This document shows positions 697-11,088 of a stretch of DNA of 27,094 bases, one piece after another. A program made the translations under genes and the position numbers. The notes under the pieces are model-generated. The model saw nothing but the letters and a program-made list of their open reading frames with translations. It was not told the DNA's origin and made no database searches. Within the stretch, counting starts at the first letter, position 1; each line of letters opens with the position of its first letter. Source of the DNA: a virus; IMG/VR virus record IMGVR_UViG_3300043772_002529, positions 1 through 27,094 of that record, one strand, 5' to 3'.

Positions 697-713
697 AATA
701 TATAAATTTTAGA

Positions 714-828
714 TGTCAGGGTGGGATTCGAACCCACATTTAGCAACCTTATAACTTCTCGCGTCCAAATTGCTCTTGGACCGTGGTGTCTTTAGGACTT
801 GGCACCGTGCCGCATTACGCTCCTGACA
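714..828 (-). tRNA. tRNA-like gene with an enlarged, non-canonical core (isotype unclear)
   Basis: A perfect 7-bp acceptor (TGTCAGG/CCTGACA) and a perfect T arm (GTGGG, loop TTCGAAT, CCCAC) frame 115 nt, about 40 more than a class I tRNA. A D-arm-like CGT/ACG stem follows the acceptor. The centre does not give a clear anticodon arm. One hairpin, GTCCAA/TTGGAC, has a 7-nt loop GAGCAAT but lacks U33. A second stem, GGTGCC/GACACC with one mismatch, has a 10-nt loop. It belongs to the group of tRNA-like genes with (A/T)GTCAGG acceptors found along this array. Confidence 0.6.
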
Positions 829-945
829 AACAACGACTCTTCAGCTTTCTACTCCCAGCACCGAGGAATTGTATCTAACTTAGCCCGTCTCACCGCTGTA
901 TGGGAACTGAAGTTCATCGTCTTTTTCTTACCGTAAAGATAAACA
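829..945 (-). ncRNA. Structured leader or spacer RNA 5' of the tRNA-like gene
   Basis: This gap between the YqeY gene and the tRNA-like gene has no reading frame but folds well on the minus strand. CTTCAG (912-907) pairs with CTGAAG (844-839). Inside it CCC and CAGC pair with GCTG and GGG, and ACGA/TCGT closes the base. The RNA could be co-transcribed with the downstream tRNA-like element. No known family is recognised. Confidence 0.4.
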
Positions 946-972
946 AAATAAATAATATAAACAATAATGGTG

Positions 973-1383
973 TCATAATTTATCTGTATTTTCCAAAAGT
1001 TCTTTTGCAATCATAGATACTGTTTTATTATCAACAAGTCCTTTATAGTTTTTATTAAACTCACCCATAATCTGTCCGAGATTGGTCAATCCACTCATTA
1101 TATATGTGATAACCTTTTCACGGATTAGATTTTCACTCATCATTTGTGGTAAATATGGTTTAATATATTCCAATTCTTTTAATGATTCTGGTGTATTAGT
1201 TTGTGTTAAAGATTTTTCCATTTTCTTTAATATACCTAATACCACATCATCAGATGCAATACCTGATCTTCCTTCTTCGTTTTGGATTTCACCCTTAACA
1301 ACACCAAGGAAGTTTTTCTTTTCCATTTCTTTGTTCTTAAATGCTAACATAAAATCGGCATTTATTTGTTCTTTTAATGTCAT
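973..1383 (-). CDS. yqeY: GatB/YqeY-domain protein (YqeY-like)
   Basis: A 136-residue protein matching the YqeY family along its whole length (bacterial members are about 148 residues). The N-terminal helix MTLKEQINADFMLAFKNKE, the E-x-L-(x)n-KPYLPQ motif near residues 71-77, and the C-terminal G-E-F-N-K...G-L-V-D-N-K-x-V-x-x-I-A-K-E-L-L block are all in order. The domain is shared with GatB, the tRNA-binding tail of Asp/Glu-tRNA amidotransferase; free-standing YqeY is thought to bind tRNA, but its exact reaction is not settled. The gene sits inside the tRNA array on the same strand, so a role in handling phage or host tRNAs is a reasonable inference. The ATG is the only start that fits the family. 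Confidence 0.85.
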   Translation of the reverse strand: MTLKEQINADFMLAFKNKEMEKKNFLGVVKGEIQNEEGRSGIASDDVVLGILKKMEKSLTQTNTPESLKELEYIKPYLPQMMSENLIREKVITYIMSGLTNLGQIMGEFNKNYKGLVDNKTVSMIAKELLENTDKL

Positions 1384-1403
1384 AATTTTTTTAATTTAAA
1401 AAA

Positions 1404-1557
1404 GGTGGAGATTTGTAACCAACATAAGATCGCCCCTACGTCTCGTTTCTTTTGTCTTAGGCACTCCACCATTGCAAGTTCTTCTTTGCTTGCGCCCCCA
1501 TTCACGGATTTCCGATTTCCCAATGGGTTTTACCGTCCTATCGGAGTCAGGTAACCG
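1404..1557 (-). ncRNA. Structured spacer RNA with a tRNA-like closing stem
   Basis: No reading frame is seen. On the minus strand GGTGGAG (1470-1464) pairs perfectly with CTCCACC (1410-1404), a 7-bp stem enclosing 53 nt, the size of a tRNA. However, the interior has no normal T arm; the nearest thing is GGTTACAAATC. TAAGA/TCTTA forms an inner stem. Upstream, GCAAG/CTTGC and CCGAT/ATCGG make further hairpins. It could be a decayed tRNA or a separate RNA. Confidence 0.4.
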
Positions 1558-1561
1558 CTGA

Positions 1562-1665
1562 AGTCAGGACCGGATTTGAACCGGTATGATGGGTTTTGCG
1601 AGAACTTCGTTGTACTTCCTATCCACATCTACTCGATATAGCGTCTACCATTCCGCCACCTGACT
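1562..1665 (-). tRNA. tRNA-like gene, Leu-type 5' half, abnormal anticodon region
   Basis: Acceptor AGTCAGG/CCTGACT and T arm ACCGG, loop TTCAAAT, CCGGT are perfect. The D arm (GCG, loop, CGC with GGTAGA) is that of tRNA-Leu. The gene is 104 nt, about 18 nt longer than tRNA-Leu. The expected anticodon arm is replaced by a bulged stem CTAT-A-TC/GGATAG with a 10-nt loop and no U33-anticodon pattern, followed by an irregular variable region. Expression as a decoding tRNA is doubtful. Confidence 0.6.
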
Positions 1666-1668
1666 ATT

Positions 1669-1764
1669 TTATGATAGTATCATAATTGTTATAGCCACAC
1701 CCAGTACGATTACTGTAAGTAAAGCTACTGCCGCTCTAATAAATGTTTTGTCGTGTTCTTTCAT
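1669..1764 (-). CDS. 31-residue single-span membrane peptide
   Basis: A short frame from ATG 1764 to TAA 1669, beginning MKEHDKTFIR. Residues 9-30 are almost entirely hydrophobic and predict one membrane helix, with a short charged N-terminus. It follows the secreted-protein gene (1777-2175) by 12 nt on the same strand and ends 4 nt before the tRNA-like gene. It is short enough to be chance, but the clean hydrophobic pattern and tight packing favour a real small membrane protein. Function unknown. Confidence 0.5.
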   Translation of the reverse strand: MKEHDKTFIRAAVALLTVIVLGVAITIMILS

Positions 1765-1776
1765 AGTATATAGGTT

Positions 1777-2175
1777 TTATTCTGGTTTGTATGTTAAGAT
1801 CAATGGTGTTCCGTTCTCATCTAAAACATTGAAGAATCGTTTTTCTCTGGTACCATCAAATTCACCAAACATTATTTTGTATACTTCATCTTCGTATAGG
1901 AGAATGCTTATGTACATTGTTCGGGCTTCAGCTGGTTTCTTAAAGAATCCAAAATCAATGGGATTCACCATTATGTCGTAAACAAATCCACTTGTATCAG
2001 CACCCAATTTATCAATTACCGTGTTGTATTTAATTATTGCTGCTCGAGGATTGGTGAATCTCATCTCATAGAGATCATGTTCATTTTTCTTGAATCCGCT
2101 CATATTACGTAACTGAAACTGACCGATTACCGTACTGGTAACGAGTAAACTAAATACTAAAATTAATTTTTTCAT
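1777..2175 (-). CDS. Predicted secreted protein with signal peptide, unknown function
   Basis: A 132-residue protein if started at ATG 2175 (MKKLILVFSLLVTS), which gives a textbook signal peptide: KK, a hydrophobic core to about residue 17, and a likely cleavage near IGQ. A longer frame to 2226 would read through the tRNA gene and is rejected. The mature part is mixed alpha/beta in character with aromatic and charged residues and no cysteines; no catalytic motif is seen. It would be exported to the periplasm or cell surface. Transcription is probably from the promoter at 2271-2302, which is shared with the tRNA at 2193-2261. Confidence 0.7.
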   Translation of the reverse strand: MKKLILVFSLLVTSTVIGQFQLRNMSGFKKNEHDLYEMRFTNPRAAIIKYNTVIDKLGADTSGFVYDIMVNPIDFGFFKKPAEARTMYISILLYEDEVYKIMFGEFDGTREKRFFNVLDENGTPLILTYKPE

Positions 2176-2192
2176 ATAACTTTTATTTTTGC

Positions 2193-2261
2193 CGTCAGGA
2201 GTGGATTTGAACCACTTACCGATCACCTTTCATATCTGCTCTACCATTGAGCCACCTGACT
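2193..2261 (-). tRNA. tRNA-like gene with class I D and T arms, defective anticodon arm
   Basis: At 69 nt it is short. The D arm GCTC/GAGC with loop AATGGTA and the T arm AGTGG, loop TTCAAAT, CCACT are canonical. The acceptor is GTCAGG/CCTGAC plus an A-G mismatch at the end. The anticodon arm keeps only three pairs (GAT/ATC) around ATGAAAGGTG. A TGAAA string resembling Phe(GAA) is visible, but the stem is broken. The 5' end lies almost exactly at the predicted start site of the promoter at 2271-2302. Confidence 0.6.
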
Positions 2262-2270
2262 ATTGTTTTA

Positions 2271-2302
2271 CAAAGATATGTATTTTATTTCAATCTACCA
2301 AA
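2271..2302 (-). promoter_or_regulatory. Bacteroidota-type promoter
   Basis: Minus strand: TTTG (2302-2299), 20 nt, TATCTTTG (2278-2271). This matches the established Bacteroidota consensus of a TTTG -33 box and TAnnTTTG -7 box. The predicted start near 2265 is just before the tRNA at 2261. Adjacent AT-rich sequence is shared with several other promoters in the array. Confidence 0.8.
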
Positions 2303-2315
2303 TCTTTTTTAAAAA

Positions 2316-2348
2316 TAAAAGGGGGAATTAAGGTGTTACCCCCTTTTT
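2316..2348 (-). terminator. Strong intrinsic terminator
   Basis: Stem AAAAGGGGG/CCCCCTTTT around a 13-nt loop, T-rich on both sides, so it could work in both directions. On the minus strand it would end transcripts coming from the structured RNA region above 2349, just before the next promoter at 2271-2302. Confidence 0.8.
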
Positions 2349-2514
2349 GTTTCTGTCGTTTGAAGTTTCTATTTTAGGTCTTGGAAACCCCATTCGGTAA
2401 AAAAAGAGACCGCAGTTTCTGGAAACTTGCCAAACCCCAGTACTTCTACCTTTGTTACTTTAACGTCTCAACAATGTTACTCAACTTGGACGAGCACCAA
2501 AAAAGACGACCTGA
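2349..2514 (-). ncRNA. Structured region 3' of the tRNA-like gene
   Basis: No convincing gene. On the minus strand a hairpin GC-A-AGTTT, loop CCAG, AAACT-GC is visible at about 2412-2431. It may be the 3' part of the large RNA transcribed from above and ending at the terminator 2316-2348. Evidence is limited to this hairpin and the lack of coding frames. Confidence 0.3.
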
Positions 2515-2605
2515 AGTCAGTCAAGGAATCGAACCTTGATACAGGGAGCTACCCGACATCCATGACCTTCCATCGGACTCGAACCGACCTTGTACCAACC
2601 TGACT
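2515..2605 (-). tRNA. Chimeric tRNA-like gene with two T-arm-like hairpins
   Basis: Acceptor AGTCAG/CTGACT (6 bp) encloses 91 nt. The 3' T arm CAAGG, loop TTCGATT, CCTTG is perfect. A second hairpin, GTCGG, loop TTCGAGT, CCGAT, sits in the place of the anticodon arm and looks like a copied T arm; read as an anticodon loop it would be U33-CGA. The D arm is almost absent. The region after the second hairpin is long (GGG-CCC stem). Probably not a normal decoding tRNA. Confidence 0.5.
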
Positions 2606-2611
2606 AAATAA

Positions 2612-3066
2612 AAAGGTTCTGAATCGTCCCTCCACTAAGCGAGGAGAACCTTTTAAGTTCATAGTATTTAGTGTCATTAGTATCCCACACCGATATGACT
2701 AGGATTCGCTAGCCCGTAGTAACCATCCACGGTGGGTTTCTACTTTCATATCGTTGTGCCTTTGGGTTTCAATATATCCTTTCGGACCATAGGACTTAAA
2801 ATTAACAACAATATTATCCTCAGAACATCTTCACCCTACCCCCATAGTTACTTGGTGAGTCTCACTCGGAAGACGAGTGTGTATTGTGAGATTGTTCAGT
2901 GTTCTCACAACTTGTGGATTGTATTACGACTAATTAAAGCCCCTAACCCCCTTAATCCATAATGGGGAATCCTTATCTAACCTGTGTAGCCTCCCCCATA
3001 GCCTTGAAGCCTTCAAGTCAGGATCACACACCATAACAGACGGATATTTCTGTTAATCGTGGGGTC
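2612..3066 (-). ncRNA. Large structured noncoding RNA (about 450 nt), family unknown
   Basis: A 450-nt stretch without a credible gene, between two tRNA-like genes. Visible helices on the minus strand include TTGTGAGA/TCTCACAA (8 bp, 2910-2884), CACTCG/CGAGTG (2879-2863), a GNRA tetraloop hairpin TCC-GAAA-GGA (2786-2777), and a closing hairpin GGTTCT/AGAACC (2650-2615) with an inner CTCC/GGAG stem. Dense helices, a GNRA loop and a position in a phage tRNA array are what is known of large ornate RNAs such as GOLLD and ROOL. I cannot assign it to either by eye. Transcription from the promoter at 4472 or an unseen one is assumed. Confidence 0.5.
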
Positions 3067-3072
3067 TTTTGT

Positions 3073-3153
3073 AGTCAGGACAGGATTCGAACCTGTATTC
3101 TCCTCAGTATTCTTATGTTGACAAAGGCACATTACCAATTCCGCCACCTGACT
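3073..3153 (-). tRNA. tRNA-Leu-like gene, possible CAA anticodon
   Basis: 81 nt. Acceptor AGTCAGG/CCTGACT and T arm ACAGG, loop TTCGAAT, CCTGT are perfect, and the D arm is of the Leu type. The best anticodon loop is GTCAACA (U33, anticodon CAA), but its stem has only CTT/AAG plus a T-T mismatch. The variable arm does not pair well. Probably a degenerate Leu tRNA or a tRNA-like RNA. Confidence 0.55.
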
Positions 3154-3208
3154 GTTTTGCGGCTACATTTTTTTATAAGGTTGCCCGATGCTTTCCTTTC
3201 TGTCTTAG

Positions 3209-3427
3209 CTATAGGTCTTCAGCACTAAAGTCCGGGTTAGCTCCCTTCCAGACAAGCTCAAGCTCCTCATCCGTTACCCGCAGGCTAGCGTTAAACTTGA
3301 GATGCACAAGCCGCTGGCAAAACCGGATACGGGCCTGTGCCTTGGCCTCGTCGCCGGAGCCGAGCTCGATCAGAGCGTCGTTGAGGTGGCTTGATATGAT
3401 GAGTGATACTGGCGTGGTGTCTGTCAT
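3209..3427 (-). CDS. Small GC-rich gene, unknown function
   Basis: A 72-residue soluble protein beginning MTDTTPVSLI with an acidic C-terminus (NPDFSAEDL). It is predicted mainly alpha-helical. Its base composition stands out: long stretches use GCC, CTC, GAG and CGG codons, while all neighbours use A/T-ending codons and flanking DNA is strongly AT-rich. That points to recent acquisition from a higher-GC source. No membrane segment, metal site or known motif is seen. It sits alone between two tRNA-like genes, with no clear promoter of either class directly upstream. Confidence 0.65.
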   Translation of the reverse strand: MTDTTPVSLIISSHLNDALIELGSGDEAKAQARIRFCQRLVHLKFNASLRVTDEELELVWKGANPDFSAEDL

Positions 3428-3476
3428 TGTTGTTATTGATAATTTGATAAGGTAAATATAACCCTTTTCGGGCTCA

Positions 3477-3500
3477 GAAAAAAACTCTTTTAGTGAGTTT
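3477..3500 (-). terminator. Intrinsic terminator
   Basis: Minus-strand stem AAACTC/GAGTTT with a 7-nt loop, followed by a T run. It lies 24 nt downstream of the tRNA-like gene at 3524-3602 and would end the transcript from the promoter at 4472-4503. Confidence 0.6.
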
Positions 3501-3523
3501 TATTACCTCAATATTACATGTGT

Positions 3524-3602
3524 AGTCAGGACAGGATTCGAACCGGTAATTCCGGTTTAACCCCTCGACAGGGCCACGTCTATCCAATTCCGCCACCTGA
3601 CT
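3524..3602 (-). tRNA. tRNA-like gene, Leu-type 5' half, anticodon loop without U33
   Basis: 79 nt with acceptor AGTCAGG/CCTGACT. The anticodon-position stem GGCCC/GGGTT has loop TGTCGAG, where position 33 is G rather than U; GAG (Leu) or TCG could be read. The T stem has one mismatch (ACCGG/CCTGT). AACCGG in the variable region can pair with CCGGTT at the T arm, a 6-bp alternative fold that would break the T arm. A tRNA-like RNA or decaying tRNA-Leu. Confidence 0.55.
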
Positions 3603-3609
3603 ATATTTT

Positions 3610-3756
3610 CTACCATCTAAGATATATTGTTGCAATACCTAAAGCAATTGCAAATACCATTTTTTTATTAGGGTGGTATTCTGTTCTTTGGCAATTGATC
3701 CCTAAGTCAAACCACCAATCTCCTTCTAAACAATTCCAAGCAATCTCCAATTTCAT
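3610..3756 (-). CDS. 48-residue small protein with C-terminal hydrophobic segment
   Basis: A frame from ATG 3756 to TAG 3610, beginning MKLEIAWNCL. The N-terminal half is rich in Trp, Asp and Cys (EGDWWFDLGINCQ). The C-terminal third (residues about 33-46) is hydrophobic and could insert in a membrane. It lies between two tRNA-like genes, 7 nt and 17 nt away, and would be co-transcribed with them. No family is recognised. The unusual composition argues for a real gene, but length limits certainty. Confidence 0.5.
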   Translation of the reverse strand: MKLEIAWNCLEGDWWFDLGINCQRTEYHPNKKMVFAIALGIATIYLRW

Positions 3757-3773
3757 AACTCTTTATTTTTTGT

Positions 3774-3895
3774 AGTCAGGACAGGACTCGAACCTGTGGT
3801 TGACGTTATTACGAATATTTCATCGTACCTCCCGTTATGCAGCCAACATACCGTTCAAGGGTTACCCCATTGTGGACACCTTCCACCGCCTGACT
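3774..3895 (-). tRNA. Oversized tRNA-like gene (122 nt)
   Basis: Acceptor AGTCAGG/CCTGACT and T arm ACAGG, loop TTCGAGT, CCTGT are perfect. The D-position hairpin GTGGA/TCCAC has a 5-nt loop. An extra GGG-TAA-CCC hairpin follows. An arm TATG, loop TTGGCTG, CATA has U33 and would read as anticodon GGC (Ala). The variable region is about 37 nt with a TACGA/TCGTA stem. At 122 nt it is far outside normal tRNA size, with two extra hairpins. Confidence 0.55.
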
Positions 3896-3896
3896 A

Positions 3897-4466
3897 TAAA
3901 AAGACATCATTAGAATTTTGACCATTACATAGTTTCCTAAGTGTGAATATACTCCGTTGATATCTTTTTTTGAGGTTGAGATCCTCTGTGTTGTGTGCCA
4001 ATCATTGTATCACATTTACTAATATTTGATTCCTTTCTCAAGGGAACAACACAATATTGTTGATAGTGATGGAGTACCCGGTCTCGCTCCAATCTTAACT
4101 GCTTGCCCGAGTTTTAGGGTGCACCGGCAGAAGGGTGATGACTATCCTTGGCCTACCTAGTTCGTCGACAACATAAGTAGAGGCGTCCACTATCAATATT
4201 TTAAAAAATGGTAAGACCTTAAGATTTACTTATTCGTGAGTCACCTCATCCCTACTACCTATACCTCACCTTTAACATCCGTTCTACCCAAACCATCGTT
4301 TATATACCTGTTATCCTCTCGGATATCTTTGAGTACCTCCTCAACTTGTAATCTGATAGGGGCTCCATTTTGCTCATCATTTCTGATTCCCTGTGGGGTT
4401 CTGCTGATATAGGTCTATCTGCTATCTTACCAATTTAATATTTTCAAAGAACGTTTTCCTTATTTG
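3897..4466 (-). ncRNA. Large structured noncoding RNA (about 570 nt) with its own promoter
   Basis: No gene fits this stretch. It starts just after a Bacteroidota-type promoter (4472-4503) and carries a boxA-like leader (4452-4444). Two long-range domains are visible on the minus strand. One is closed by GGTAAGA (4431-4425) with TCTTACC (4216-4210), enclosing about 210 nt. The second is closed by GATAGTG (4194-4188) with CACTATC (4068-4062) and extended by AATATT on both sides. It runs into the oversized tRNA-like gene. Size, tRNA proximity and ornate fold resemble the GOLLD/ROOL class of phage RNAs; this is inference, not a family match. Confidence 0.55.
4444..4452 (-). promoter_or_regulatory. 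boxA-like antitermination element
   Basis: Minus strand GTTCTTTGA about 13 nt after the predicted start of transcription. boxA (E. coli rrn: GCTCTTTAACA) binds NusB/S10 and prevents early termination of rRNA. The same string occurs in two other tRNA leaders in this window. Confidence 0.5.
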
Positions 4467-4471
4467 TTTTA

Positions 4472-4503
4472 CAAAGATATATAATCTATTTCAATCTACC
4501 AAA
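4472..4503 (-). promoter_or_regulatory. Bacteroidota-type promoter for the large RNA
   Basis: Minus strand TTTG (4503-4500), 20 nt, TATCTTTG (4479-4472). The predicted start near 4465 is followed by the boxA-like leader and the structured RNA. Confidence 0.8.
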
Positions 4504-4587
4504 TGTTTTTTAAAAAAAAATTAATTTTTAGGTTAGTTTGTATGACTTTTTTGTGGGTTCGTGATATTTATATATAAAGGAGGTATT

Positions 4588-5493
4588 ATGTTTAAATGTA
4601 AAATTTGTAATCGTAAGTTAGATAATTTTGGTAACTTTAATCAACACATTAAAAAGTGTGAAAAATTATCACAAATAAAAGATGATATCATCAATCTTTA
4701 TGTAAATGAAGATTATTCAGTTAGGGATTTAAGAAAAAAATTTAAAGTCCAATCTGATGATATAAAAATTATATTAGGAGATAAAGTTAGGTCACTATCC
4801 GAATCAAATAAAATTGCTCGTAAAAAATACCCAGATAATTTCAAACATACTGAAGAAAGTAAAAAAATAATGCGAGAGAAAAGATTGGAATTTATGAAAA
4901 ATAACCCAGAAAAAACCGCTTGGAGGTTATCAAATGTCTCTTACCCTGAAAAATTATGTATTGAATATATTGAAAAAAATGGTTTAGATAAAAAATATTC
5001 AATAGTTAGAGAATATTCGGTTTTTCCTTATTTTGTTGATTTTGCTTTCTTAAATGAAATGGTTGCGGTTGAAATTGATGGATCACAACATCTTTTACCG
5101 GAAAGAAAAGAAAGAGACAATAAAAAAGATAAACTGTTAAATGATTTGGGTTGGTTGGTTGTAAGAATTTCAGAGAAAGAAATAAAAACAAATATTGAAA
5201 ATGTTTTTAATGAAATTATTTCAATATTAAAAGACAAACCAAAAATTAATAATCACCGAATCGGATTGGTTGTTAAACCAAAAAAATATCAAAAAAAGGA
5301 AAGAAATGAATTTGGTTTTACTGAGTTAGAAATTTTATCCAAATTTAAACAACGAAAGGTAGAAAGACCCCCATTATCGGTTTTATTAGATCAAACTAAA
5401 CAAATGGGGTTTCCTAAAACCGGAAAACTTTATAATGTATCCGAAAATACAATTAGAAAGTGGATAAAAGCATACCATAAAGGTTTAGGTTAG
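4588..5493 (+). CDS. Free-standing Vsr-like (DUF559/EDxHD-type) homing endonuclease
   Basis: A 301-residue protein starting at ATG 4588, which has a strong ribosome site (AAAGGAGG, 5 nt spacing) just after the ATATTTAT box; an earlier GTG at 4561 lies inside that box and is rejected. An N-terminal zinc-finger-like unit (C-x2-C...H-x4-C in CKICNRKL...HIKKC) leads into a helical DNA-binding linker. The central nuclease core carries SYPEK, FVDFAF and VEIDGSQH, the acidic and His residues of the Vsr/EDxHD nuclease fold, then GWLVVRISEKE. The C-terminus has a helix-turn-helix-like segment (GKLYNVSENTIRKWI). It runs against the array and ends next to the tRNA-Glu gene, so it probably targets a tRNA-array site. 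Confidence 0.85.
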   Translation: MFKCKICNRKLDNFGNFNQHIKKCEKLSQIKDDIINLYVNEDYSVRDLRKKFKVQSDDIKIILGDKVRSLSESNKIARKKYPDNFKHTEESKKIMREKRLEFMKNNPEKTAWRLSNVSYPEKLCIEYIEKNGLDKKYSIVREYSVFPYFVDFAFLNEMVAVEIDGSQHLLPERKERDNKKDKLLNDLGWLVVRISEKEIKTNIENVFNEIISILKDKPKINNHRIGLVVKPKKYQKKERNEFGFTELEILSKFKQRKVERPPLSVLLDQTKQMGFPKTGKLYNVSENTIRKWIKAYHKGLG

Positions 5494-5565
5494 TATTCCG
5501 ACGGAGGATCGAACTCCGAACTAGGCATAGAAAGTGCCTCGTGATCGCCATTTCACTACCGGAAC
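5494..5565 (-). tRNA. tRNA-Glu(TTC)
   Basis: Canonical 72-nt cloverleaf: acceptor GTTCCGG/TCGGAAT with G-T ends, D arm GTGA/TCAC, anticodon stem AGGCA/TGCCT with loop CTTTCTA, T arm CGGAG/CTCCG. Anticodon TTC. CCA is not encoded. Its 3' end abuts the stop codon of the convergent endonuclease gene. Confidence 0.92.
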
Positions 5566-5571
5566 ATTTTT

Positions 5572-5645
5572 TGGCGGGCTATGACGGTTACGATCCGTCG
5601 ATTTCTGATAGACAGTCAGATATGATACCATTTCACCAATAGCCC
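5572..5645 (-). tRNA. tRNA-Asp(GTC)
   Basis: Canonical fold: acceptor GGGCTAT/ATAGCCC followed by GCCA, so unlike most neighbours the CCA end is encoded. Anticodon stem TCTGA/TCAGA with loop CTGTCTA, anticodon GTC. T loop is ATCGTAA. It lies 6 nt upstream of tRNA-Glu on the same transcript. Confidence 0.92.
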
Positions 5646-5646
5646 A

Positions 5647-5733
5647 AGTTAAGATGAGTCGTGGACTTGTGTACCACTTGTCCCCCTTTAAGTTTCTCAC
5701 TAACCCTAGGTGTGGGGAAACTCATCTTGTTTG
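5647..5733 (-). ncRNA. Structured leader of the Asp-Glu tRNA transcript
   Basis: Between the promoter (5739-5770) and tRNA-Asp the leader is closed by a 9-bp stem AAGATGAGT/ACTCATCTT, with inner C- and G-rich stretches that can pair. The stem starts within a few bases of the predicted start site and ends about 4 nt before the tRNA, so it may guide processing or block the 5' end. No known family. Confidence 0.45.
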
Positions 5734-5738
5734 TCTTA

Positions 5739-5770
5739 CAAAGATAGGTATTTTATTTCAATCCACCAAA
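5739..5770 (-). promoter_or_regulatory. Bacteroidota-type promoter for tRNA-Asp/Glu
   Basis: Minus strand TTTG (5770-5767), 20 nt, TATCTTTG? The box reads TATCTTTG at 5746-5739. The upstream AT-rich stretch is nearly identical to that before the promoter at 8966-8997. Confidence 0.8.
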
Positions 5771-5776
5771 TCTTTT

Positions 5777-5932
5777 TTAAACTTTTTTGTGGGACCCGCT
5801 CCCCACTCTGAACTTGTACTTCGTTCTATAGAGCGTTTTTTTCAGTTTCCTTAAAAAATCAGTTTTTACGTTTGTTTTAACAAATTTAACCCTTCCTGAT
5901 TCACAAGTCCCTGATAAAACTTCCTTCATCAT
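5777..5932 (-). CDS. 51-residue basic protein
   Basis: A frame from ATG 5932 (MMKEVLSGTCESGR) to TAA 5777. A second ATG follows directly. The product is very basic (many Lys and Arg, C-terminus GSGSHKKV), soluble, with no membrane segment; nucleic-acid binding is plausible but no motif supports it. It ends 7 nt before the -33 box of the next promoter, the same gene-stop-promoter arrangement seen at the two 96-residue paralogues. The frame remains open upstream into the tRNA-like gene at 5960, so the true start is uncertain. Confidence 0.5.
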   Translation of the reverse strand: MMKEVLSGTCESGRVKFVKTNVKTDFLRKLKKTLYRTKYKFRVGSGSHKKV

Positions 5933-5959
5933 TCTTTCGTATTTGTTGTTTATTTTTTG

Positions 5960-6035
5960 AACTACCCATAGGACTCGAACCTACAGCCCTTCGGCTTCGT
6001 GCCGACGTGCAAACCCATTTACACCATAAGTAGTT
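5960..6035 (-). tRNA. tRNA of unclear isotype, anticodon loop without U33
   Basis: 76 nt. Acceptor AACTACT/GGTAGTT, D arm GTG/CAC with GGG in the loop, T arm GTAGG, loop TTCGAGT, CCTAT. The anticodon stem TCGG/CCGA holds a 7-nt loop CACGAAG, where position 33 is A and 34-36 would be CGA (Ser), though the short variable loop does not fit tRNA-Ser. Overall a good cloverleaf with a doubtful anticodon. Confidence 0.65.
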
Positions 6036-6042
6036 AATCAAG

Positions 6043-6097
6043 AAGACATATCAGGAAATACTGGTACCAAATTTCTCTGAGATATATGATACATCTT
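6043..6097 (-). ncRNA. Long hairpin between tRNAs
   Basis: An 11-bp stem AAGATGTATCA/TGATATGTCTT (two G-T pairs) with an inner GAAAT/ATTTC helix. The rest of 6036-6132 has no gene. It may be a processing spacer. Confidence 0.45.
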
Positions 6098-6132
6098 CTC
6101 GTTAGGACTCGGTTAATTACTCCGGTCTTTGT

Positions 6133-6203
6133 TGATTAAAAAGGATTTGAACCTTAATCCCGGACTCCAATGACGGTTCCTGTGCACCATTACACCATAA
6201 TCA
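6133..6203 (-). tRNA. tRNA with CAT anticodon, imperfect fold (Met or Ile2)
   Basis: 71 nt. Acceptor TGATTA/TAATCA, D arm TGTA/TGCA with a 4-nt loop, T arm AAGG, loop TTCAAAT, CCTT. The anticodon loop GTCATTG has U33 and anticodon CAT, but its stem has two internal mismatches. The D arm resembles that of tRNA-Met at 8676-8745. Possibly degenerate. The leader from 6204 to 6253 contains a TCTCA/TGAGA hairpin and a T-arm-like GGTTCGAAACTACC remnant. Confidence 0.55.
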
Positions 6204-6258
6204 ATCGGTAGTTTCGAACCTTCCAGTCTCAAGATAGATAATCCTGAGATTTGTTTTA

Positions 6259-6290
6259 CAAAGATATATATTTTATTTCAATCTAACAAA
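6259..6290 (-). promoter_or_regulatory. Bacteroidota-type promoter overlapping the end of an HNH gene
   Basis: Minus strand TTTG (6290-6287), 20 nt, TATCTTTG (6266-6259). The last codons and the stop of the HNH gene (6278) lie inside the -33 region, as also happens at 13193-13224. Confidence 0.8.
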
Positions 6291-7075
6291 TATTTTTTAT
6301 CCCAATCTTCAATTTTTTTTAATAATTCATCAATTGTAATATTTGATTTTTTATTTTTAGAAATGTTTTCATTATGAACCATTAACTTACAATTTGCGGG
6401 ATGTGATATAATCTTTGGGTCTATTTTATTTTTAAATCCCTCATTCACTGAATAAATGTGATCTCTACTAACACCACCTAAATTGTTACCCCTATTAACT
6501 GGTTTATACCATCCATACTCTTCAATGAGTGAAAACTCAAATTCACTTGGAAAATCTGAAAGGTTAAAATTAAATTTAGTGTCTTGTTTGTATTGTTTAT
6601 AATCTGACATCAAATTTCTTTCATACATTCTCCTACAATCTATACAACAATATTTATTATTACGTTTTTTGAAACTTAATAAATTATTACAATTACAACA
6701 TTTATTTGGTGTTTTGTTATACTCAATAAACTCTTTAGTTACACCAATACGTTCCAAGTTAGTTCTAATTATATTTTCCCTACCTTGTTGTGTCATTTTA
6801 TATTTAAGACCTTTTCTGTTTGTCCGATTAATGGATGAATTTCTACATTCATCAGAACAATAAAGTTTAGTTCTATCTTTATAGTCAATAGGTAATTCAC
6901 ATTTTTTACATTTTTTTGGATTTTGTGAATATTTTTCTTTTGATAGTTCTTTTATCCTACCACTATTTTTAGTATAATCTCTTAAATTTTTATTTACATA
7001 GATATTCCTACAAGTCAAAGAACAATATGTGTTTTTTTCTTTGATGTTTATTCCACAATTTTTACACTCTTTCAT
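6278..7075 (-). CDS. HNH homing endonuclease with multiple zinc ribbons
   Basis: A 265-residue protein starting at ATG 7075 (MKECKNCG), preceded by an AAGG ribosome site and the box ATATTTAT. A longer frame to 7273 reads through tRNA-Ala and is rejected. Three or four CxxC units (CKNCG...CSLTC, CKKCEL...CSDEC, CCNCNN...CCIDC) predict zinc ribbons that bind DNA. The nuclease core is near residues 205-245: SRDHIYSV, then NCKLMVHNENISKNKKS. The stop codon lies in the promoter for the next tRNA, so the gene appears to be inserted right up to that promoter. Confidence 0.85.
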   Translation of the reverse strand: MKECKNCGINIKEKNTYCSLTCRNIYVNKNLRDYTKNSGRIKELSKEKYSQNPKKCKKCELPIDYKDRTKLYCSDECRNSSINRTNRKGLKYKMTQQGRENIIRTNLERIGVTKEFIEYNKTPNKCCNCNNLLSFKKRNNKYCCIDCRRMYERNLMSDYKQYKQDTKFNFNLSDFPSEFEFSLIEEYGWYKPVNRGNNLGGVSRDHIYSVNEGFKNKIDPKIISHPANCKLMVHNENISKNKKSNITIDELLKKIEDWDKKYLLD

Positions 7076-7128
7076 AATTACCTTTATTAATAAATATCGG
7101 TAATTGTGGAAAAAGTTATTAACGAAGT

Positions 7129-7204
7129 GGAGGAGGTGGGACTCGAACCCACATAAAACCCTCTCGATGCAAACGAGCCGCTCATCCAATTGAGCTACAC
7201 CCCC
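7129..7204 (-). tRNA. tRNA-Ala(TGC)
   Basis: Acceptor GGGGGTG/CTCCTCC with one mismatch, D arm GCTC/GAGC, anticodon stem CTCG/CGAG with loop TTTGCAT (anticodon TGC), T arm GTGGG/CCCAC. The variable region is 9 nt instead of 4-5, which is unusual for Ala. Confidence 0.85.
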
Positions 7205-7207
7205 ATT

Positions 7208-7243
7208 TAAAAAAAATAAACCTTCCGTGCTCACCACGGGTTT
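7208..7243 (-). terminator. Intrinsic terminator upstream of tRNA-Ala
   Basis: Minus strand: AAACC and CGTG pair with CACG and GGTTT around GTGAG, followed by A and eight T. It would end the structured RNA that lies above it, leaving tRNA-Ala to read-through or a separate start. Confidence 0.65.
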
Positions 7244-7488
7244 GGATTTGATCGATGGTTTGTTCCCCATCACCTGTTGACGTGCACATCAGAGCAGGGT
7301 CCATTACAGAGTACCTTGGGTCATTTCCGTCCTCTCAGTAAAGGTTGCGATCCTACGAGAGCCAAGGTTCCTTTCATCCGCGCTAATCGGACTTCTGTAA
7401 GATTTATTTTAAAAAGACACACAATAGTGAGTGTAGTAAAGTCCCCATAAACCAGAGAATATGGGGTTTCTCACTAAGTATGTCTCAG
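7244..7488 (-). ncRNA. Structured RNA: long hairpin plus multi-branch domain
   Basis: No gene. The 5' part (7485-7415) is one long hairpin of three stacked helices: AGACATAC/GTGTGTCT, TAGTGAG/CTCACTA and CCCCATA/TATGGGG, followed by TTTTT. The next domain is closed by TTACAGA/TCTGTAA (7400-7394 with 7310-7304) and holds TCCG/CGGA, CCTTGG/CCAAGG and CTCTC/GAGAG; the last has a T-loop-like ATCGCAA tip. A GATGG/CCATC hairpin and the terminator at 7208-7243 follow. The set of nested perfect helices makes a structured RNA likely; its family is unknown. Confidence 0.55.
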
Positions 7489-7489
7489 A

Positions 7490-7561
7490 GCGGGTGGTGA
7501 GATTCAAACTCACAACTTTTGGCGTGGAAGACCAACACTCTATCAATTGAGCTACACCCGC
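7490..7561 (-). tRNA. tRNA-Gly(TCC)
   Basis: Canonical: acceptor GCGGGTG/CACCCGC, D arm GCTC/GAGT, anticodon stem TTGGT/GCCAA with loop CTTCCAC (TCC), T arm GTGAG/CTCAC. Confidence 0.93.
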
Positions 7562-7781
7562 AAATTGTGACTACTCCTTGGGTAGTTTCGTCACTTAACG
7601 TGAATGGGGTGATCAAACCTACTAACAACACGGGTGTAAGTTTATACGTCAAACTTATCTCATCAACAACGGCAGTTTTTCTCGCCTTAAACTGATAAAC
7701 GATTTGATTCCTTGTACCCTATCTTTTAAGTGCTCGGTACACTCATCTCTCAAACTGAACTCTACTGCATACACTCCCAGT
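7562..7781 (-). ncRNA. Structured spacer between tRNA-Ile(TAT) and tRNA-Gly
   Basis: No credible gene. Minus-strand helices include GTGAC...ACTAC paired with GTAGT...GTCAC (7594-7567), TAAGTTT/AAACTTA with a 7-nt loop (7657-7637), and GTACC/GGGTAC. It looks like the other structured spacers of the array. Confidence 0.4.
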
Positions 7782-7854
7782 ACCGAAGACGGGACTCGAA
7801 CCCATAACCTTGACGATATAAGCGTCCTGCTCTCACCAATTGAGCTACGTCGGC
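7782..7854 (-). tRNA. tRNA-Ile(TAT)
   Basis: Acceptor GCCGACG/CTTCGGT with one mismatch, D arm GCTC/GAGC, anticodon stem GACG/CGTC with loop CTTATAT, T arm ATGGG/CCCGT. Anticodon TAT reads AUA directly. Most bacteria read AUA with a lysidine-modified CAU tRNA, so this isotype is uncommon and frees the phage from that modification. Confidence 0.85.
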
Positions 7855-7859
7855 ATAAT

Positions 7860-8486
7860 TTATTTTTTTCTTCTGTAAACCTCACCTTTATAGTGTTTAT
7901 CAACAAATCTTTTTACTTGTGAATGTGTTAAACCTAAAATATCAGATACTTTTTTTACCCACCCATAAGTTGTCATATCAACATCTTTAATTAAATCTAA
8001 CCTTTCAGTGACAATATCTTCAGTTAATTTATTAAAACCACCGAATTTATCACCCATTTTTTTTGCATTATTAATTCTAAATTCTAAAGGTACCGATTCC
8101 CAAGTTTTTTTTCTTTTTTCTTTATTATCCCACGAACCAGCAATACTTCCATATTTTAATCCGTGTAATCGTCTCTTTTCTTCTGTCCAATAATTTTTAT
8201 TTACGTGATCAAAAGAACCTAAACCACCCAAAGAAATGTTATATGTGTTTTTATTAGTTACAAAACTTTCATTAACTATCTCACTTTCCATCTGAAACAT
8301 TTGCTTTGGGTTATCAAATATTGCTAAATATTTTTTATCAAAGTTATCAATTCCGTATTTTTTAATGGCCTCCTTTATATTTTTTCCAGACCCCATATAC
8401 CCATCGTTAAGATTTTCAGTTTTATGTACACCAACATAAATCTTACCATTAACTTTATTTGTTATTTCATAAACTATGTATTTCAT
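7860..8486 (-). CDS. GIY-YIG homing endonuclease
   Basis: A 208-residue protein. The GIY-YIG domain covers about residues 1-95: YIVYEITNKVNGKIYVGVHKT holds the two motif strands (YIVY and YVG replace GIY and YIG), followed by YMGSGKNI, the helix IKKYGIDNF, and the catalytic Glu region MESEIV and N-x-S-x-GG. The C-terminal part (about 100-208) has charged NUMOD-like repeats (KYGSIAGSW, GDKFGGFNK) and an HTH-like tail (VSDILGLTHSQVKRFV). The start has a strong ribosome site (GGAGG) and an ATATTTAT box upstream. It ends 5 nt before tRNA-Ile(TAT). Such genes spread into tRNA loci. Confidence 0.9.
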   Translation of the reverse strand: MKYIVYEITNKVNGKIYVGVHKTENLNDGYMGSGKNIKEAIKKYGIDNFDKKYLAIFDNPKQMFQMESEIVNESFVTNKNTYNISLGGLGSFDHVNKNYWTEEKRRLHGLKYGSIAGSWDNKEKRKKTWESVPLEFRINNAKKMGDKFGGFNKLTEDIVTERLDLIKDVDMTTYGWVKKVSDILGLTHSQVKRFVDKHYKGEVYRRKK

Positions 8487-8524
8487 TTTGAACCTCCGTT
8501 TATATATAAATATAACGATAGTTC

Positions 8525-8547
8525 AAAAATTGTCAGTCTTTCCTGAC
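8525..8547 (-). terminator. Intrinsic terminator
   Basis: Minus strand GTCAG/CTGAC with a 6-nt loop, then AATTTTTG. It closes the tRNA transcript ending after 8610 and separates it from the GIY-YIG gene promoter box. Confidence 0.6.
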
Positions 8548-8609
8548 CGTCACCTCTAACCCACAGGTATGAACCCGTATTGTAGTAAAGCTTGGTTGGC
8601 TATGAAATA

Positions 8610-8669
8610 AGGATGAACACGGGCCTAGCAAGCCATCTTTCAGGAAAGGCCCTTCCACCTATTCATCCT
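8610..8669 (-). ncRNA. Long hairpin downstream of tRNA-Met
   Basis: Perfect 8-bp stem AGGATGAA/TTCATCCT and inner 6-bp GGGCCT/AGGCCC. It lies 6 nt after tRNA-Met, so it may mark the 3' processing end. No gene is seen in 8548-8675. Confidence 0.45.
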
Positions 8670-8675
8670 ATTAGT

Positions 8676-8745
8676 AGCGTGTCGTGGACTCGAACCACCC
8701 CGTAGACGTTATGAGCGTCCCATGCAACCAATTACACCTTCACGC
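8676..8745 (-). tRNA. tRNA-Met(CAT)
   Basis: Acceptor GCGTG/CACGC with two weak inner pairs, D arm TGTA/TGCA, anticodon stem GGACG/CGTCT with loop CTCATAA (CAT), T stem GTGG/CCAC with loop TTCGAGT. Elongator type; CAT could also mean Ile2. Confidence 0.8.
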
Positions 8746-8752
8746 AATATGT

Positions 8753-8858
8753 AGTCAAAGAAGGATTCGAACCTATCACGAGATAAGTGTGAGATTCACC
8801 TTACCCCAAGGAGTTTTGAGTATTATCTCCCAGCGTCTACCAATTCCGCCACTTGACT
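8753..8858 (-). tRNA. tRNA-Leu(CAA)-like with enlarged anticodon loop and variable arm
   Basis: 106 nt. Acceptor AGTCAAG/TTTGACT, Leu-type D arm. Anticodon stem GGGAG/CTCCT holds a 13-nt loop: six extra bases (ATAATA) precede a normal CTCAAAA loop. The variable arm is unusually long, GGTAAG/CTTATC plus GTGA/TCAC, about 10 bp. The T stem is weak (three pairs). If the six bases were removed it would be a standard Leu(CAA). Confidence 0.65.
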
Positions 8859-8871
8859 GTTTTATTGTAGT

Positions 8872-8965: not shown

Positions 8966-8997
8966 CAAAGATATGTATTTTATTTTAATCTACCAAA
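8966..8997 (-). promoter_or_regulatory. Bacteroidota-type promoter
   Basis: Minus strand TTTG (8997-8994), 20 nt, TATCTTTG (8973-8966). It lies 17 nt after the stop of the 96-residue gene at 9015-9305. Confidence 0.8.
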
Positions 8998-9341: not shown

Positions 9342-9400
9342 TTTATTTTTGTAGTCCGGGTGGGACTTGAACCCACACGCCCAGATGGGCAACAGATTTT

Positions 9401-10099
9401 CTTACCACTATAGTTTTCACTACCAAACAAAATGTTGTTTGTGGTCTGGACTATACCTTAACCATATCATTAAAGACTTAGGTTCTCCGTGTCTAGTCTC
9501 TACACCTTCCTTTTTTCAAAGGCTTGGCTCGGTATTCCCAGTTTAAAGGGTTCACCGAATTTACGGAGTTCTACTCAAAGAGTTTCCTCTATGGCACTCA
9601 AATTAACTTCTTTTCTTACTTCTATAAGTTTCTGTTTGTGAATGACAATTAGGACATAAAATTCTTAAATTATCAATTTTATGATTAGCCCTATTACCAT
9701 CAATATGGTCTAATTCACAATTTAAAGGTTTATTATTCCATTCTGTAACACCACAAAGACAACATTCATTTTTTAAAATCCCTTCTTTAAATAAACGATT
9801 TTTTAGTTTAAATGTTTGAAACTGTGGATATTCCCCATTTAAAATTTTATCTGTCGATACTCTAACAACACCTTTTTTATTTTTACCTTTCCCTCCTTGG
9901 TTTGGGTCATAAACACCAAACTTTTGAGCGTAACGTTTAAACGTGTTAAAATGTAAACCTAATTTTAGTGATGCTTCAGCCATTGTGACAGATTCATTCA
10001 CAATTCTAATAAACTCATTTTCTTCAATATCTTTCTTCATACTATTATTTTTAATATAAATATCAGACATTTAGGAAAAATTTTCGTAAAAGTCTATAT
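9401..10099 (-). ncRNA. Group I self-splicing intron with internal HNH gene
   Basis: A 699-nt intron that follows U at the 5' site and ends in G (plus-strand C 9401). The conserved core is read in order on the minus strand: P element AATTCGGTGAACC, Q element AATACCGAGCCAAGCC, R element with GAGACTAGACACGG, and S element AAGGTATAGTCC; GACTA and TAGTC form P7. The HNH gene fills the 5' part, before the core. The P1 guide pairing could not be located with confidence. Confidence 0.9.
9603..10040 (-). CDS. Intron-encoded HNH homing endonuclease
   Basis: A 145-residue protein. ATG 10040 (MKKDIEENEF) is preferred: the ATATTTAT box lies just upstream, inside the longer frame that begins at 10070. 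The N-terminal half has an HTH-like segment (MAEASLKLGLHFNTFKRYA). The HNH core is C-terminal: CCLCG, then LDHIDGNRANHKIDNLRI and CPNCHSQT, giving the catalytic His-Asn-His and two zinc-binding CxxC pairs. It lies wholly in the group I intron of tRNA-Leu(UAA) and presumably cleaves intronless alleles to spread the intron. Confidence 0.9.
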   Translation of the reverse strand: MKKDIEENEFIRIVNESVTMAEASLKLGLHFNTFKRYAQKFGVYDPNQGGKGKNKKGVVRVSTDKILNGEYPQFQTFKLKNRLFKEGILKNECCLCGVTEWNNKPLNCELDHIDGNRANHKIDNLRILCPNCHSQTETYRSKKRS

Positions 10100-10148
10100 A
10101 AGTCTGTCTTGTATACCAGTTTCAACACCGGACCTTATTTTACCATTA

Positions 10149-10159
10149 TGTCAAAGAAC
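10149..10159 (-). promoter_or_regulatory. boxA-like antitermination element
   Basis: Minus strand GTTCTTTGACA, about 7 nt after the predicted start of the tRNA-Leu transcript. It matches the E. coli boxA GCTCTTTAACA at 9 of 11 positions. Confidence 0.55.
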
Positions 10160-10407: not shown

Positions 10408-10632
10408 TTATTTATTGTGTAATCTTTTAAATACATTTAATAATTCTGGGTTGTTTTTGATTTTATTTATTAAATCTTTCATTTTAGTATCTAAAAATTT
10501 TTGATAATCTTCATTACTTTCAAAACCCATTTTTTTCCAATCCATTTCTTTTTTATTTTTCTTATCTTCATTAACAACACGTCTAACAATTCTTGTTAAA
10601 TCCGATTCTGTTAGTCTAATTACTTTTTTCAT
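10408..10632 (-). CDS. Small protein with virion-type N-terminal leader
   Basis: A 74-residue protein. Residues 1-22 (MKKVIRLTESDLTRIVRRVV then NE) form the recurrent basic amphipathic leader seen in several proteins of this window, ending in V-x-E, the kind of site cleaved by phage prohead proteases. The rest is a Lys-rich helical domain (KMGFESNEDYQKFLDTKMKDLINK). It follows smpB by 45 nt with its own ATATTTAT box. By analogy with capsid-targeting sequences of T4 internal proteins it may be packaged in the head. This is inference. Confidence 0.7.
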   Translation of the reverse strand: MKKVIRLTESDLTRIVRRVVNEDKKNKKEMDWKKMGFESNEDYQKFLDTKMKDLINKIKNNPELLNVFKRLHNK

Positions 10633-10677: not shown

Positions 10678-11088
10678 TTATTTACTATTGGTTTTTAACA
10701 TATCACGTTCTTGGTCTCTTTTTTTGATTGTTTCCCTCTTGTCATATAATTTTTTTCCTCTACCAATAACGATTTCCAATTTTATCAATCCCTTGTCGTT
10801 GGTGTAAATTTTATATGGAACTATTGTCAAACCCTTTTCCATACGTTTTTCAATGTCTCTGATTTCCTTTTTATTTAAAAGTAACTTAATTTCTCTTTTT
10901 TCTTCAGATGTTGTTATATTTAAGTTTCTAACAAACATCTCGCAGTTCTTTATATAACAATAGGTATCAACAATACTGACCTTATTATCTTTAATTGATT
11001 TAACTTCATTTCCACTTAAAATAATACCACAAGAATACTTTTCAATAATCTCATATTCAAATTGAACTTTTTTGTTTGTTATTAACAT
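10678..11088 (-). CDS. smpB: SmpB, tmRNA-binding protein
   Basis: A 136-residue protein that matches SmpB (usually 150-160 residues) across its length. NKKVQFEYEIIEKYSCGIILSGNEVKSI is the N-terminal OB-fold block, followed by SIVDTYCYIKNCEMFV, LLLNKKEI and the hallmark GLTIVPYKIYTNDKGLIKLEI...GRGKKLYDKR near residues 82-119. The C-terminal tail (KKRDQERDMLK) is the helix that inserts into the ribosome. The gene starts 15 nt after tRNA-Leu(TAG) on the same transcript. No tmRNA gene was found in this window, so it would work with host tmRNA or one encoded elsewhere. SmpB in a phage tRNA island suggests control of stalled ribosomes. Confidence 0.92.
   Translation of the reverse strand: MLITNKKVQFEYEIIEKYSCGIILSGNEVKSIKDNKVSIVDTYCYIKNCEMFVRNLNITTSEEKREIKLLLNKKEIRDIEKRMEKGLTIVPYKIYTNDKGLIKLEIVIGRGKKLYDKRETIKKRDQERDMLKTNSK

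What the first reader, a model, noticed from the sequence alone, without database searches (positions are those of the whole stretch)
700..8858. A family of tRNA-like genes with one shared acceptor stem and variable, non-canonical cores
At least seven genes (714, 1562, 2193, 2515, 3073, 3524, 3774) have the acceptor (A/T)GTCAGG/CCTGAC(T/A/G), and 8753 has the related AGTCAAG. Three share an identical 3' strand up to the T loop. Between acceptor and T arm their cores differ in length (69 to 122 nt), carry extra hairpins, and mostly lack a normal anticodon loop with U33. The constant ends would let RNase P, RNase Z and CCA-adding enzyme act, while the middle varies. That is what one expects of RNAs used for something other than decoding, such as decoys for host tRNA-cutting defences. 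Simple decay of duplicated tRNA-Leu genes is the main alternative.
Basis: partly seen in the sequence, partly recalled or inferred. Interest (0 to 1): 0.8.

Follow-up and report, generated by a model that had tools for sequence, protein, structure and literature searches.

The report
Phage tRNA-like RNAs with exchangeable cores
Large uncultured phages, probably of Bacteroidota, carry a previously undescribed, very widespread family of small RNA genes that keep the two ends of a transfer RNA but replace the decoding middle with one of hundreds of different sequences that are swapped as whole cassettes between related phages.

Summary
Eight tRNA-like genes lie on the minus strand (714-828 to 8753-8858). 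Their signature, acceptor AGUCAGG/CCUGACU with a Leu-type D arm and a T arm, occurs in at least 164 of 223 fetched loci. I collected 371 distinct genes, with up to 15 copies per phage. About 95% lack a canonical anticodon arm (18 of 333 have one).

This is not decay. Acceptor, D and T stems covary. Two window cores (714, 2515) recur in 32 and 49 viral contigs, and gene 8753 is 100% identical in a relative whose flanks are 90%. Where flanks are homologous, core identity is bimodal: at or above 0.9 (20 pairs), at or below 0.6 (22 pairs), almost nothing between. Phages about 97% identical carry different cores between identical flanks, and one core appears at different loci. The tRNA ends are therefore a constant frame around an exchangeable payload.

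Best reading: non-decoding, tRNA-scaffolded small RNAs, matured by host tRNA enzymes, diversified by cassette exchange; payload function unknown. Decoys for tRNA-cutting defences are not supported specifically and not excluded. Rfam and the open literature searched hold nothing like it.

The parts
714..828 (-). tRNA-like gene 'type 714': acceptor TGUCAGG/CCUGACA, no D arm, own closing stem, hairpin ACACCACGGUCC..GGACGCGAGA, T arm
   Evidence: 32 viral contigs share the core pattern; alignment A1 with covariation 0.317 vs 0.148 shuffled, 0/500; 92% identical in L349 vs 77% flanks
1562..1665 (-). tRNA-like gene, Leu-type D arm, core without anticodon arm; the gene at the same place in two relatives has a different body
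2193..2261 (-). short tRNA-like gene (69 nt); promoter-like site directly upstream
   Evidence: Rfam tRNA 40.9 bits; promoter-like site 2271-2302
2515..2605 (-). tRNA-like gene 'type 2515': a second T-arm-like hairpin in place of the D arm
   Evidence: 49 viral contigs with the exact 26-nt core; acceptor and T stem covary
3073..3153 (-). tRNA-like gene, Leu-type D arm, irregular anticodon region (ARAGORN 'Leu-CAA')
   Evidence: absent from near-identical phage G041
3524..3602 (-). tRNA-like gene, 7-nt loop with G33 (ARAGORN 'Arg-UCG'), mismatched T stem
   Evidence: absent from G041
3774..3895 (-). longest tRNA-like gene of the window (122 nt), no homologous core found
8753..8858 (-). tRNA-like gene, acceptor AGUCAAG; Leu(CAA)-like loop enlarged by 6 nt plus extra hairpins
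   Evidence: 106/106 identical in L284 with flanks 90%, 103/106 in L349 with flanks 88%
2271..2302 (-). Bacteroidota-type promoter-like site (TTTG-N20-TATCTTTG) just upstream of gene 2193; near-identical copies at 4472-4503, 5739-5770, 6259-6290, 8966-8997
   Evidence: 10 sites in the window vs 2.4 expected, 0/100 shuffles
2618..7551 (.). block that holds genes 3073, 3524 and 3774 and is replaced by other sequence in phage G041, over 99% identical on both sides

Best explanation
The genes encode non-decoding small RNAs built on a tRNA scaffold. A constant 5' part (acceptor strand and, usually, a Leu-type D arm) and a constant 3' part (T arm and acceptor strand) fold as in a tRNA. Host RNase P, RNase Z and CCA-adding enzyme would therefore cut out and cap the RNA from the phage's tRNA transcript. 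The middle is a payload: one of hundreds of different sequences, some clearly structured. It is kept intact while it is used, and exchanged as a whole with other payloads by recombination whose borders fall in the constant ends. What each payload does (binding a host protein or RNA during infection) is inferred, not shown. Shown here: the family, its folds, core conservation, and core swapping with end retention. Inferred: processing, expression, and action through the payload.
For: Family: at least 164 of 223 loci; 371 distinct genes; non-ARAGORN tRNA-like genes nearly all have AGUCAGG while canonical tRNAs in the same loci have diverse acceptors. Fold: acceptor pairs 356-371/371 standard, T stem with compensatory types, Levitt pair 15:48 A-U 298 or G-C 19. 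No anticodon arm: 18/333 with 5 bp, 7-nt loop and U33; 1.65 expected by shuffling. Cores constrained: types 714 and 2515; gene 8753 100% vs 90% flanks; unswapped cores 0.964 vs flanks 0.898. Cores exchanged: 44 flank-homologous pairs, 22 with core identity at most 0.6, 20 at least 0.9. G001 vs G344: flanks identical, core different at three loci; the core of G001:16325 sits at another locus in G344, and one G344 core is present at two loci. L037 vs L304: both 60-nt flanks identical, core replaced. Maturation left to the host: CCA-adding enzyme 2/41, RtcB 0/41. Hairpin of type 714 also sits in a phage tmRNA, and type-714 genes exist without it: modules move.
Against: No expression or processing data. 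Most cores (221 of 281 clusters) are singletons, so constraint is shown only for those with relatives. Core folding energy is only slightly better than shuffled (mean z -0.62). Canonical tRNAs in these arrays are also replaced between flanks (6 of 42 loci against 7 of 20; p = 0.09), so swapping is partly a general property of phage tRNA arrays. In all six canonical cases the anticodon was kept, so exchange of unlike cores could mean that the cores are equivalent and the function lies in the scaffold. Flank-homologous pairs are few and not independent.
Confidence: 0.55

Rival explanations
1. Scaffold-only decoy or sink. The function is in the elbow, acceptor and CCA end. The RNAs occupy a host factor that binds tRNA (for example a tRNA-cutting or CCA-modifying defence effector) and cannot be cut because they have no anticodon loop. 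Core sequence matters little.
For: Scaffold is the only shared part; up to 15 copies per phage; minimal members keep D and T arms with a core of about a dozen nt (L284 ~7190-7252); members replace one another freely at a locus; phage tRNAs are known to counter tRNA-cutting defences (PMC11555353, by supplying specific tRNAs).
Against: Unswapped cores are more conserved than flanks; types 714 and 2515 lack a D arm and are near-invariant inside the core; acceptor not found in 294 other Bacteroidia genomes; paralogues in one phage keep different cores instead of being homogenised.
Confidence: 0.2
2. DNA-level cassettes. The conserved ends are mainly recombination or homing sites that spread the cassettes selfishly; the tRNA fold is a relic of the tRNA-Leu from which they arose.
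For: Clean exchange with borders in the ends; many endonuclease genes in the array; deletion between the 3' ends of neighbouring genes in G344.
Against: Compensatory changes in acceptor, T and D stems and retention of tRNA tertiary positions are expected of an RNA, not of a DNA site; cores conserved above flanks.
Confidence: 0.1
3. Leucine-accepting, non-decoding tRNAs: charged by host LeuRS, which ignores the anticodon, and used outside decoding.
For: Leu-type D arm, A15:U48 in 298/371 and A73 in 323/371; canonical phage tRNA-Leu have both in 39/39.
Against: 48/371 lack A73, including window genes 714, 1562, 2193 and 2515; types 714 and 2515 have no D arm; the constant acceptor is not a known Leu identity element (own knowledge).
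Confidence: 0.07
4. tmRNA-like rescue RNAs working with phage SmpB, which would stand in for the missing anticodon arm.
For: Window encodes SmpB (10678-11088, PF01668 E 2e-41); a type-714 hairpin lies in a phage tmRNA; a tmRNA lies beside family genes in G037 (L256).
Against: SmpB in only 6 of 41 records (many are fragments); no tag reading frame looked for or evident; most members have a full D stem, unlike tmRNA.
Confidence: 0.05
5. Decaying duplicates of tRNA-Leu.
For: D-arm sequence is that of tRNA-Leu; single window genes such as 3774 have no relative.
Against: Ends conserved across hundreds of divergent phages, covariation, conservation above flanks, bimodal core identity.
Confidence: 0.03

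Closest known systems
Canonical phage tRNA genes (Rfam RF00005), especially tRNA-Leu
   Same: Acceptor, Leu-type D arm, T arm, elbow positions, A73 in most, position in tRNA arrays, no encoded CCA
   Different: No anticodon arm in about 95%; one acceptor sequence for most members; hypervariable core of about 13-150 nt
Bacterial Y RNAs with a tRNA-like module (YrlA, RF02553) bound by Rsr/Ro60 (own knowledge)
   Same: tRNA-like module joined to a non-tRNA domain
   Different: No convincing YrlA match in the window (one partial, below gathering score, over canonical tRNAs); acceptor is a closed stem with tRNA-type ends, cores are unrelated to each other; presence of Ro60 not tested
tmRNA (RF00023)
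   Same: tRNA-like acceptor and T arm closing a non-tRNA body; one hairpin module shared with a phage tmRNA (L326)
   Different: 65-190 nt, D stem present in most, no Rfam match to tmRNA in the window genes; SmpB not a consistent neighbour
GOLLD and ROOL RNAs (PMC12286853)
   Same: Structured phage RNAs of unknown function near tRNA islands
   Different: They are long and ornate (many GOLLD over 800 nt) and form cages; not tRNA-ended, not a hypervariable family
tRNA-scaffold display of recombinant RNAs (laboratory method, own knowledge)
   Same: A payload replaces the anticodon arm between intact tRNA ends, giving processing and stability
   Different: Artificial; here a natural gene family with payload exchange
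Integron gene cassettes or antigenic-variation cassettes
   Same: Constant borders, exchangeable middle, copies at several loci
   Different: No dedicated recombinase found or sought in depth; the borders are themselves a functional RNA fold

Membership tests
Canonical decoding tRNA | 7-bp acceptor, T arm with TTCRA loop, D arm with GG | tested here: met
   for the family (selected on acceptor/T arm); window genes 714 and 2515 have no ordinary D arm
Canonical decoding tRNA | Anticodon arm: 5 bp, 7-nt loop, U33 | tested here: not met
   18 of 333 members have it; none of the eight window genes in regular form
Canonical decoding tRNA | Rfam RF00005 gathering score | tested here: inconclusive
   Window: three genes pass, one below cut-off, four not found
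tRNA-Leu | A73 and A15:U48 | tested here: inconclusive
   A73 323/371, A15:U48 298/371, canonical Leu 39/39; four window genes lack A73
tRNA pseudogene (decay) | No pair conservation, divergence like flanking DNA | tested here: not met
tmRNA | Match to RF00023 and an SmpB partner | tested here: not met
   No RF00023 match in the window genes; SmpB in 6/41 records
Y RNA (YrlA) | Match to RF02553; Rsr/Ro60 partner | tested here: not met
   Only a weak partial RF02553 hit (22.4 bits, cut-off 69) over canonical tRNAs 12987-13044; partner not tested
GOLLD / ROOL | Match to the Rfam models | tested here: not met
   No match listed in the window or in nine related loci
Anticodon-nuclease decoy | Intact but altered anticodon loop of the targeted tRNA | tested here: not met
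   No anticodon arm in most members
tRNA-scaffolded RNA | Processing by RNase P and RNase Z, CCA added | not testable with these tools
   Needs small-RNA sequencing

The most novel reading that the evidence does not exclude
Phages of Bacteroidota maintain a shared, open-ended pool of RNA payloads mounted in a standard tRNA frame. Recombination through the frame shuffles payloads between loci and phages, giving each phage a changing set of small RNA effectors against host defences or host functions, an RNA counterpart of exchangeable gene cassettes.
Probability: 0.35. Interest if true: 0.93.

Novelty: categorically new. Interest (0 to 1): 0.84.

Why it matters
It would be one of the most diverse non-coding RNA families known in viruses: 281 core types in 371 genes, about 820 estimated by Chao1. 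It hides among genes that annotation pipelines call 'tRNA-Undet' or overlook. It shows that phage tRNA arrays carry more than decoding tRNAs, and offers a natural, ready-made test of what a tRNA without an anticodon arm can do. If the payloads act on host factors, it opens a large class of RNA-based phage weapons.

Tried and rejected
SmpB as partner: in 6 of 41 records. RtcB, CCA-adding enzyme, YqeY as partners: 0, 2 and 1 of 41. The YqeY domain looked attractive because it lies between genes 714 and 1562, but only the window has it.

Antisense guides: exact 13-mers of cores in the rest of their own contig, 7 observed against 3-13 shuffled. Matches in other contigs were raised (1817 vs about 1300), which unmasked diverged family members could explain.

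Host-tRNA mimicry: the 3' end is absent from 294 other Bacteroidia genomes.

Known RNA families in the cores: none in Rfam apart from tRNA and one nearby tmRNA. Cultured phages: no relative of cores 714 or 2515 in 50,697 records.

Literature: searches found no description; subscription journals and preprints are largely outside the library, so priority is not proven.

Upstream promoters for the whole family: 11 of 369 upstream regions against 1 in shuffles, so most are presumably read through from array promoters.

The alignment A2 contained one wrong row and was replaced by A3.
Full report
What is in the window. The window is a 27,094-base fragment of an uncultured virus. Its minus strand carries 22 ARAGORN tRNAs, intermixed with endonuclease genes and repeated promoter-like sites of the Bacteroidota type (TTTG-N-TAnnTTTG; 10 sites, 2.4 expected). 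Each closes with a tRNA-type acceptor and T arm. None has a regular 5-bp anticodon stem with a 7-nt loop and U33.

A family, not a local oddity. Nearly every 5' hit is a complete gene: AGUCAGG, U8, a D arm like that of tRNA-Leu, a core of arbitrary sequence, then ACAGG-UUCGAAU-CCUGU and CCUGACU. A scan of 223 loci for any tRNA-like gene (acceptor, D stem, T arm) found that genes not recognised by ARAGORN almost all use AGUCAGG, while canonical tRNAs in the same loci use many acceptors. In 41 viral records the 3' end occurs at over 120 places (up to 15 per record), never with the reversed control pattern, and mostly on one strand per record. Array maps show phages with nearly full decoding tRNA sets plus a dozen such genes. 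After further fetching I have 371 distinct genes, 65-190 nt long, median 103. The loci were fetched by these motifs, so the acceptor figures are partly a matter of selection.

Fold. Over the 371 genes the seven acceptor pairs are standard in 356-371, with compensatory types at several positions. The T stem shows up to six pair types per position, and T-loop residues are as in tRNA; U8 was required by the search. Position pair 15:48 is A-U in 298 and G-C in 19, the tertiary Levitt pair of tRNA. Only 18 of 333 with a recognisable D stem have a regular anticodon arm, against 1.65 by chance. A few members are complete cloverleaves: L182:4958-5029 is the body of a tRNA-Ile(UAU) seen in L005 with the AGUCAGG acceptor in place of its own. 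The acceptor is not strictly fixed: GGUCAGG, TGUCAGG, AGUCAAG, AAUCAGA, AGUUGGG and, in MW202828, AGUGCAG with matching 3' strands occur.

The cores are maintained. Gene 714 has relatives in 32 viral contigs. Their alignment supports a fold with acceptor, a separate closing stem, an almost invariant hairpin and T arm: 99% of cells paired, 46 cells with a change on both sides against 14 in shuffles, covariation score 0.317 against 0.148, 0 of 500. Gene 2515 has relatives in 49 contigs with a second T-arm-like hairpin; its acceptor and T stem covary, its core hardly varies (part of that invariance is the search pattern). Gene 8753 is 106/106 identical in L284 where the flanks are 90%, and 103/106 in L349 with flanks 88%; gene 714 is 92% in L349 against 77% flanks. 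Neither core 714 nor core 2515 occurs in 50,697 deposited phage records.

The cores are exchanged whole. Phage G041 is 99% or more identical to the window at 1-2,618, 7,551-8,863 and 11,095-27,094, but the blocks between differ, and genes 3073, 3524 and 3774 are missing there while another tRNA-like gene is present. At the place of gene 1562 two relatives keep the downstream DNA but have other bodies, one with only about 13 nt between D and T arms. Phages G001 and G344 (about 97% identical) show the process plainly: at three loci the 30-nt flanks are identical on both sides and the core is different. The core of G001:16325 is found at another locus of G344 (7544), one core is present at two G344 loci, and two G001 genes are fused into one in G344 at their common 3' end. 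In L037 versus L304 both 60-nt flanks are identical and the core is replaced. Across all loci, 44 gene pairs with homologous flanks give core identities at most 0.6 (22 pairs) or at least 0.9 (20 pairs), two between; where not replaced and with diverged flanks, cores are more alike than flanks (0.964 against 0.898, p = 0.04). Decay would give a continuum. Control: canonical tRNAs in these arrays are also replaced between flanks, in 6 of 42 loci against 7 of 20 for the family (p = 0.09), and on inspection of the listed pairs always by a tRNA with the same anticodon. Replacement is thus partly a general habit of these arrays; what is special is that the family keeps its ends and not its middle.

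Modules. Type-714 genes exist with and without the conserved hairpin. The same hairpin lies inside a phage tmRNA in L326. Clustering the 371 cores gives 281 clusters, 221 singletons, Chao1 about 824. Cores fold slightly better than shuffled (mean z -0.62, p = 3e-11).

Partners and hosts. SmpB is in 6 of 41 records, RtcB in none, CCA-adding enzyme in 2, YqeY in 1; many records are fragments, so absence is weak evidence. The 3' end is absent from 294 other Bacteroidia genomes; in the four bacterial MAG assemblies searched that hold it, all hits lie on a single contig, which suggests phage contigs. The frame is therefore not copied from a host tRNA present in the sampled genomes. The Leu-like features (A73 87%, A15:U48 80%) are weaker than in the phages' own tRNA-Leu (39/39 for both), and four window genes lack A73, so general charging with leucine is unlikely.

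Mechanism. Shown: tRNA-type ends under pairing constraint, absence of a decoding arm, constrained cores, exchange of cores within constant ends. Inferred from tRNA biology: release from the array transcript by host RNase P and RNase Z, CCA addition, stability. Inferred with less certainty: the core acts, probably on a host component, and exchange is favoured because hosts differ. A scaffold-only decoy remains the main rival, because members replace one another freely.

Novelty. Rfam 15 has no matching family apart from tRNA itself, and eight literature searches found no description. A cultured phage, Tenacibaculum pT24, has two annotated 'tRNA-Undet' genes without a normal anticodon loop but with another acceptor, so related RNAs may be wider than the AGUCAGG family. 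The literature library is open-access only, so priority is not proven.

Noticed in passing
window 9357-10150 (-): A tRNA-Leu(UAA) gene appears split in its anticodon loop by a group I intron (RF00028, 58.2 bits at 9426-9615) that holds an HNH-like endonuclease ORF (9603-10070).
   Followed up: partly
window 10678-11088 (-): The phage encodes SmpB (PF01668, E 2e-41), nearest among deposited phages to huge uncultured and Lak phages (under 50% identity); no tmRNA gene was found in the window.
   Followed up: partly
window 973-1383 (-): A stand-alone YqeY-domain protein (the tRNA-binding tail domain of GatB) lies between tRNA-like genes 714 and 1562.
   Followed up: partly
window 7247-7308 (-): Match to the orphan Rfam family freshwater-1 (RF02979, 85 bits) between tRNA genes.
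   Followed up: no
window 1386-1560 (-) and 838-929 (-): Two non-coding stretches next to tRNA-like genes are conserved in several relatives (L284, L349, L317) and look like further structured RNAs.
   Followed up: partly
window 12020-12145 and 12230-12320 (-): Stretches between tRNA genes closed by terminal inverted repeats (AAGATGAT..ATCATCTT, AAATAGTTC..GAACTATTT), possibly more small RNAs.
   Followed up: no
window 4561-5493, 6278-7081, 7860-8486, 9603-10070, 13215-13883, 16983-17345: Likely endonuclease genes (DUF559, GIY-YIG/SegE, HNH-like; three without a Pfam match) scattered through the tRNA array.
   Followed up: partly
window 10408-10632, 15432-15854; L346 14718-15056: Otherwise unlike proteins share an N-terminus of the form MKKVIRLTESDLTRIVRRVI.E, perhaps a targeting or propeptide tag.
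   Followed up: no
L182 4958-5029 and L005 10-81: A tRNA-Ile(UAU) body appears once with its own acceptor and once with the AGTCAGG acceptor, an acceptor swap on a decoding tRNA.
   Followed up: partly
L256 6309-6803: Phage record G037 carries a tmRNA (RF00023, 68.5 bits) among tRNA and tRNA-like genes.
   Followed up: no
L346 12960-14657: Near-identical phage G041 carries an IS605-type pair (OrfB/TnpB-like and TnpA-like proteins, judged by eye) in the block that replaces window 2618-7551.
   Followed up: no
L356 2290-2368 and 2657-2735: Tenacibaculum phage pT24 has two near-identical 'tRNA-Undet' genes without a normal anticodon loop, acceptor GGUUGUA.
   Followed up: partly
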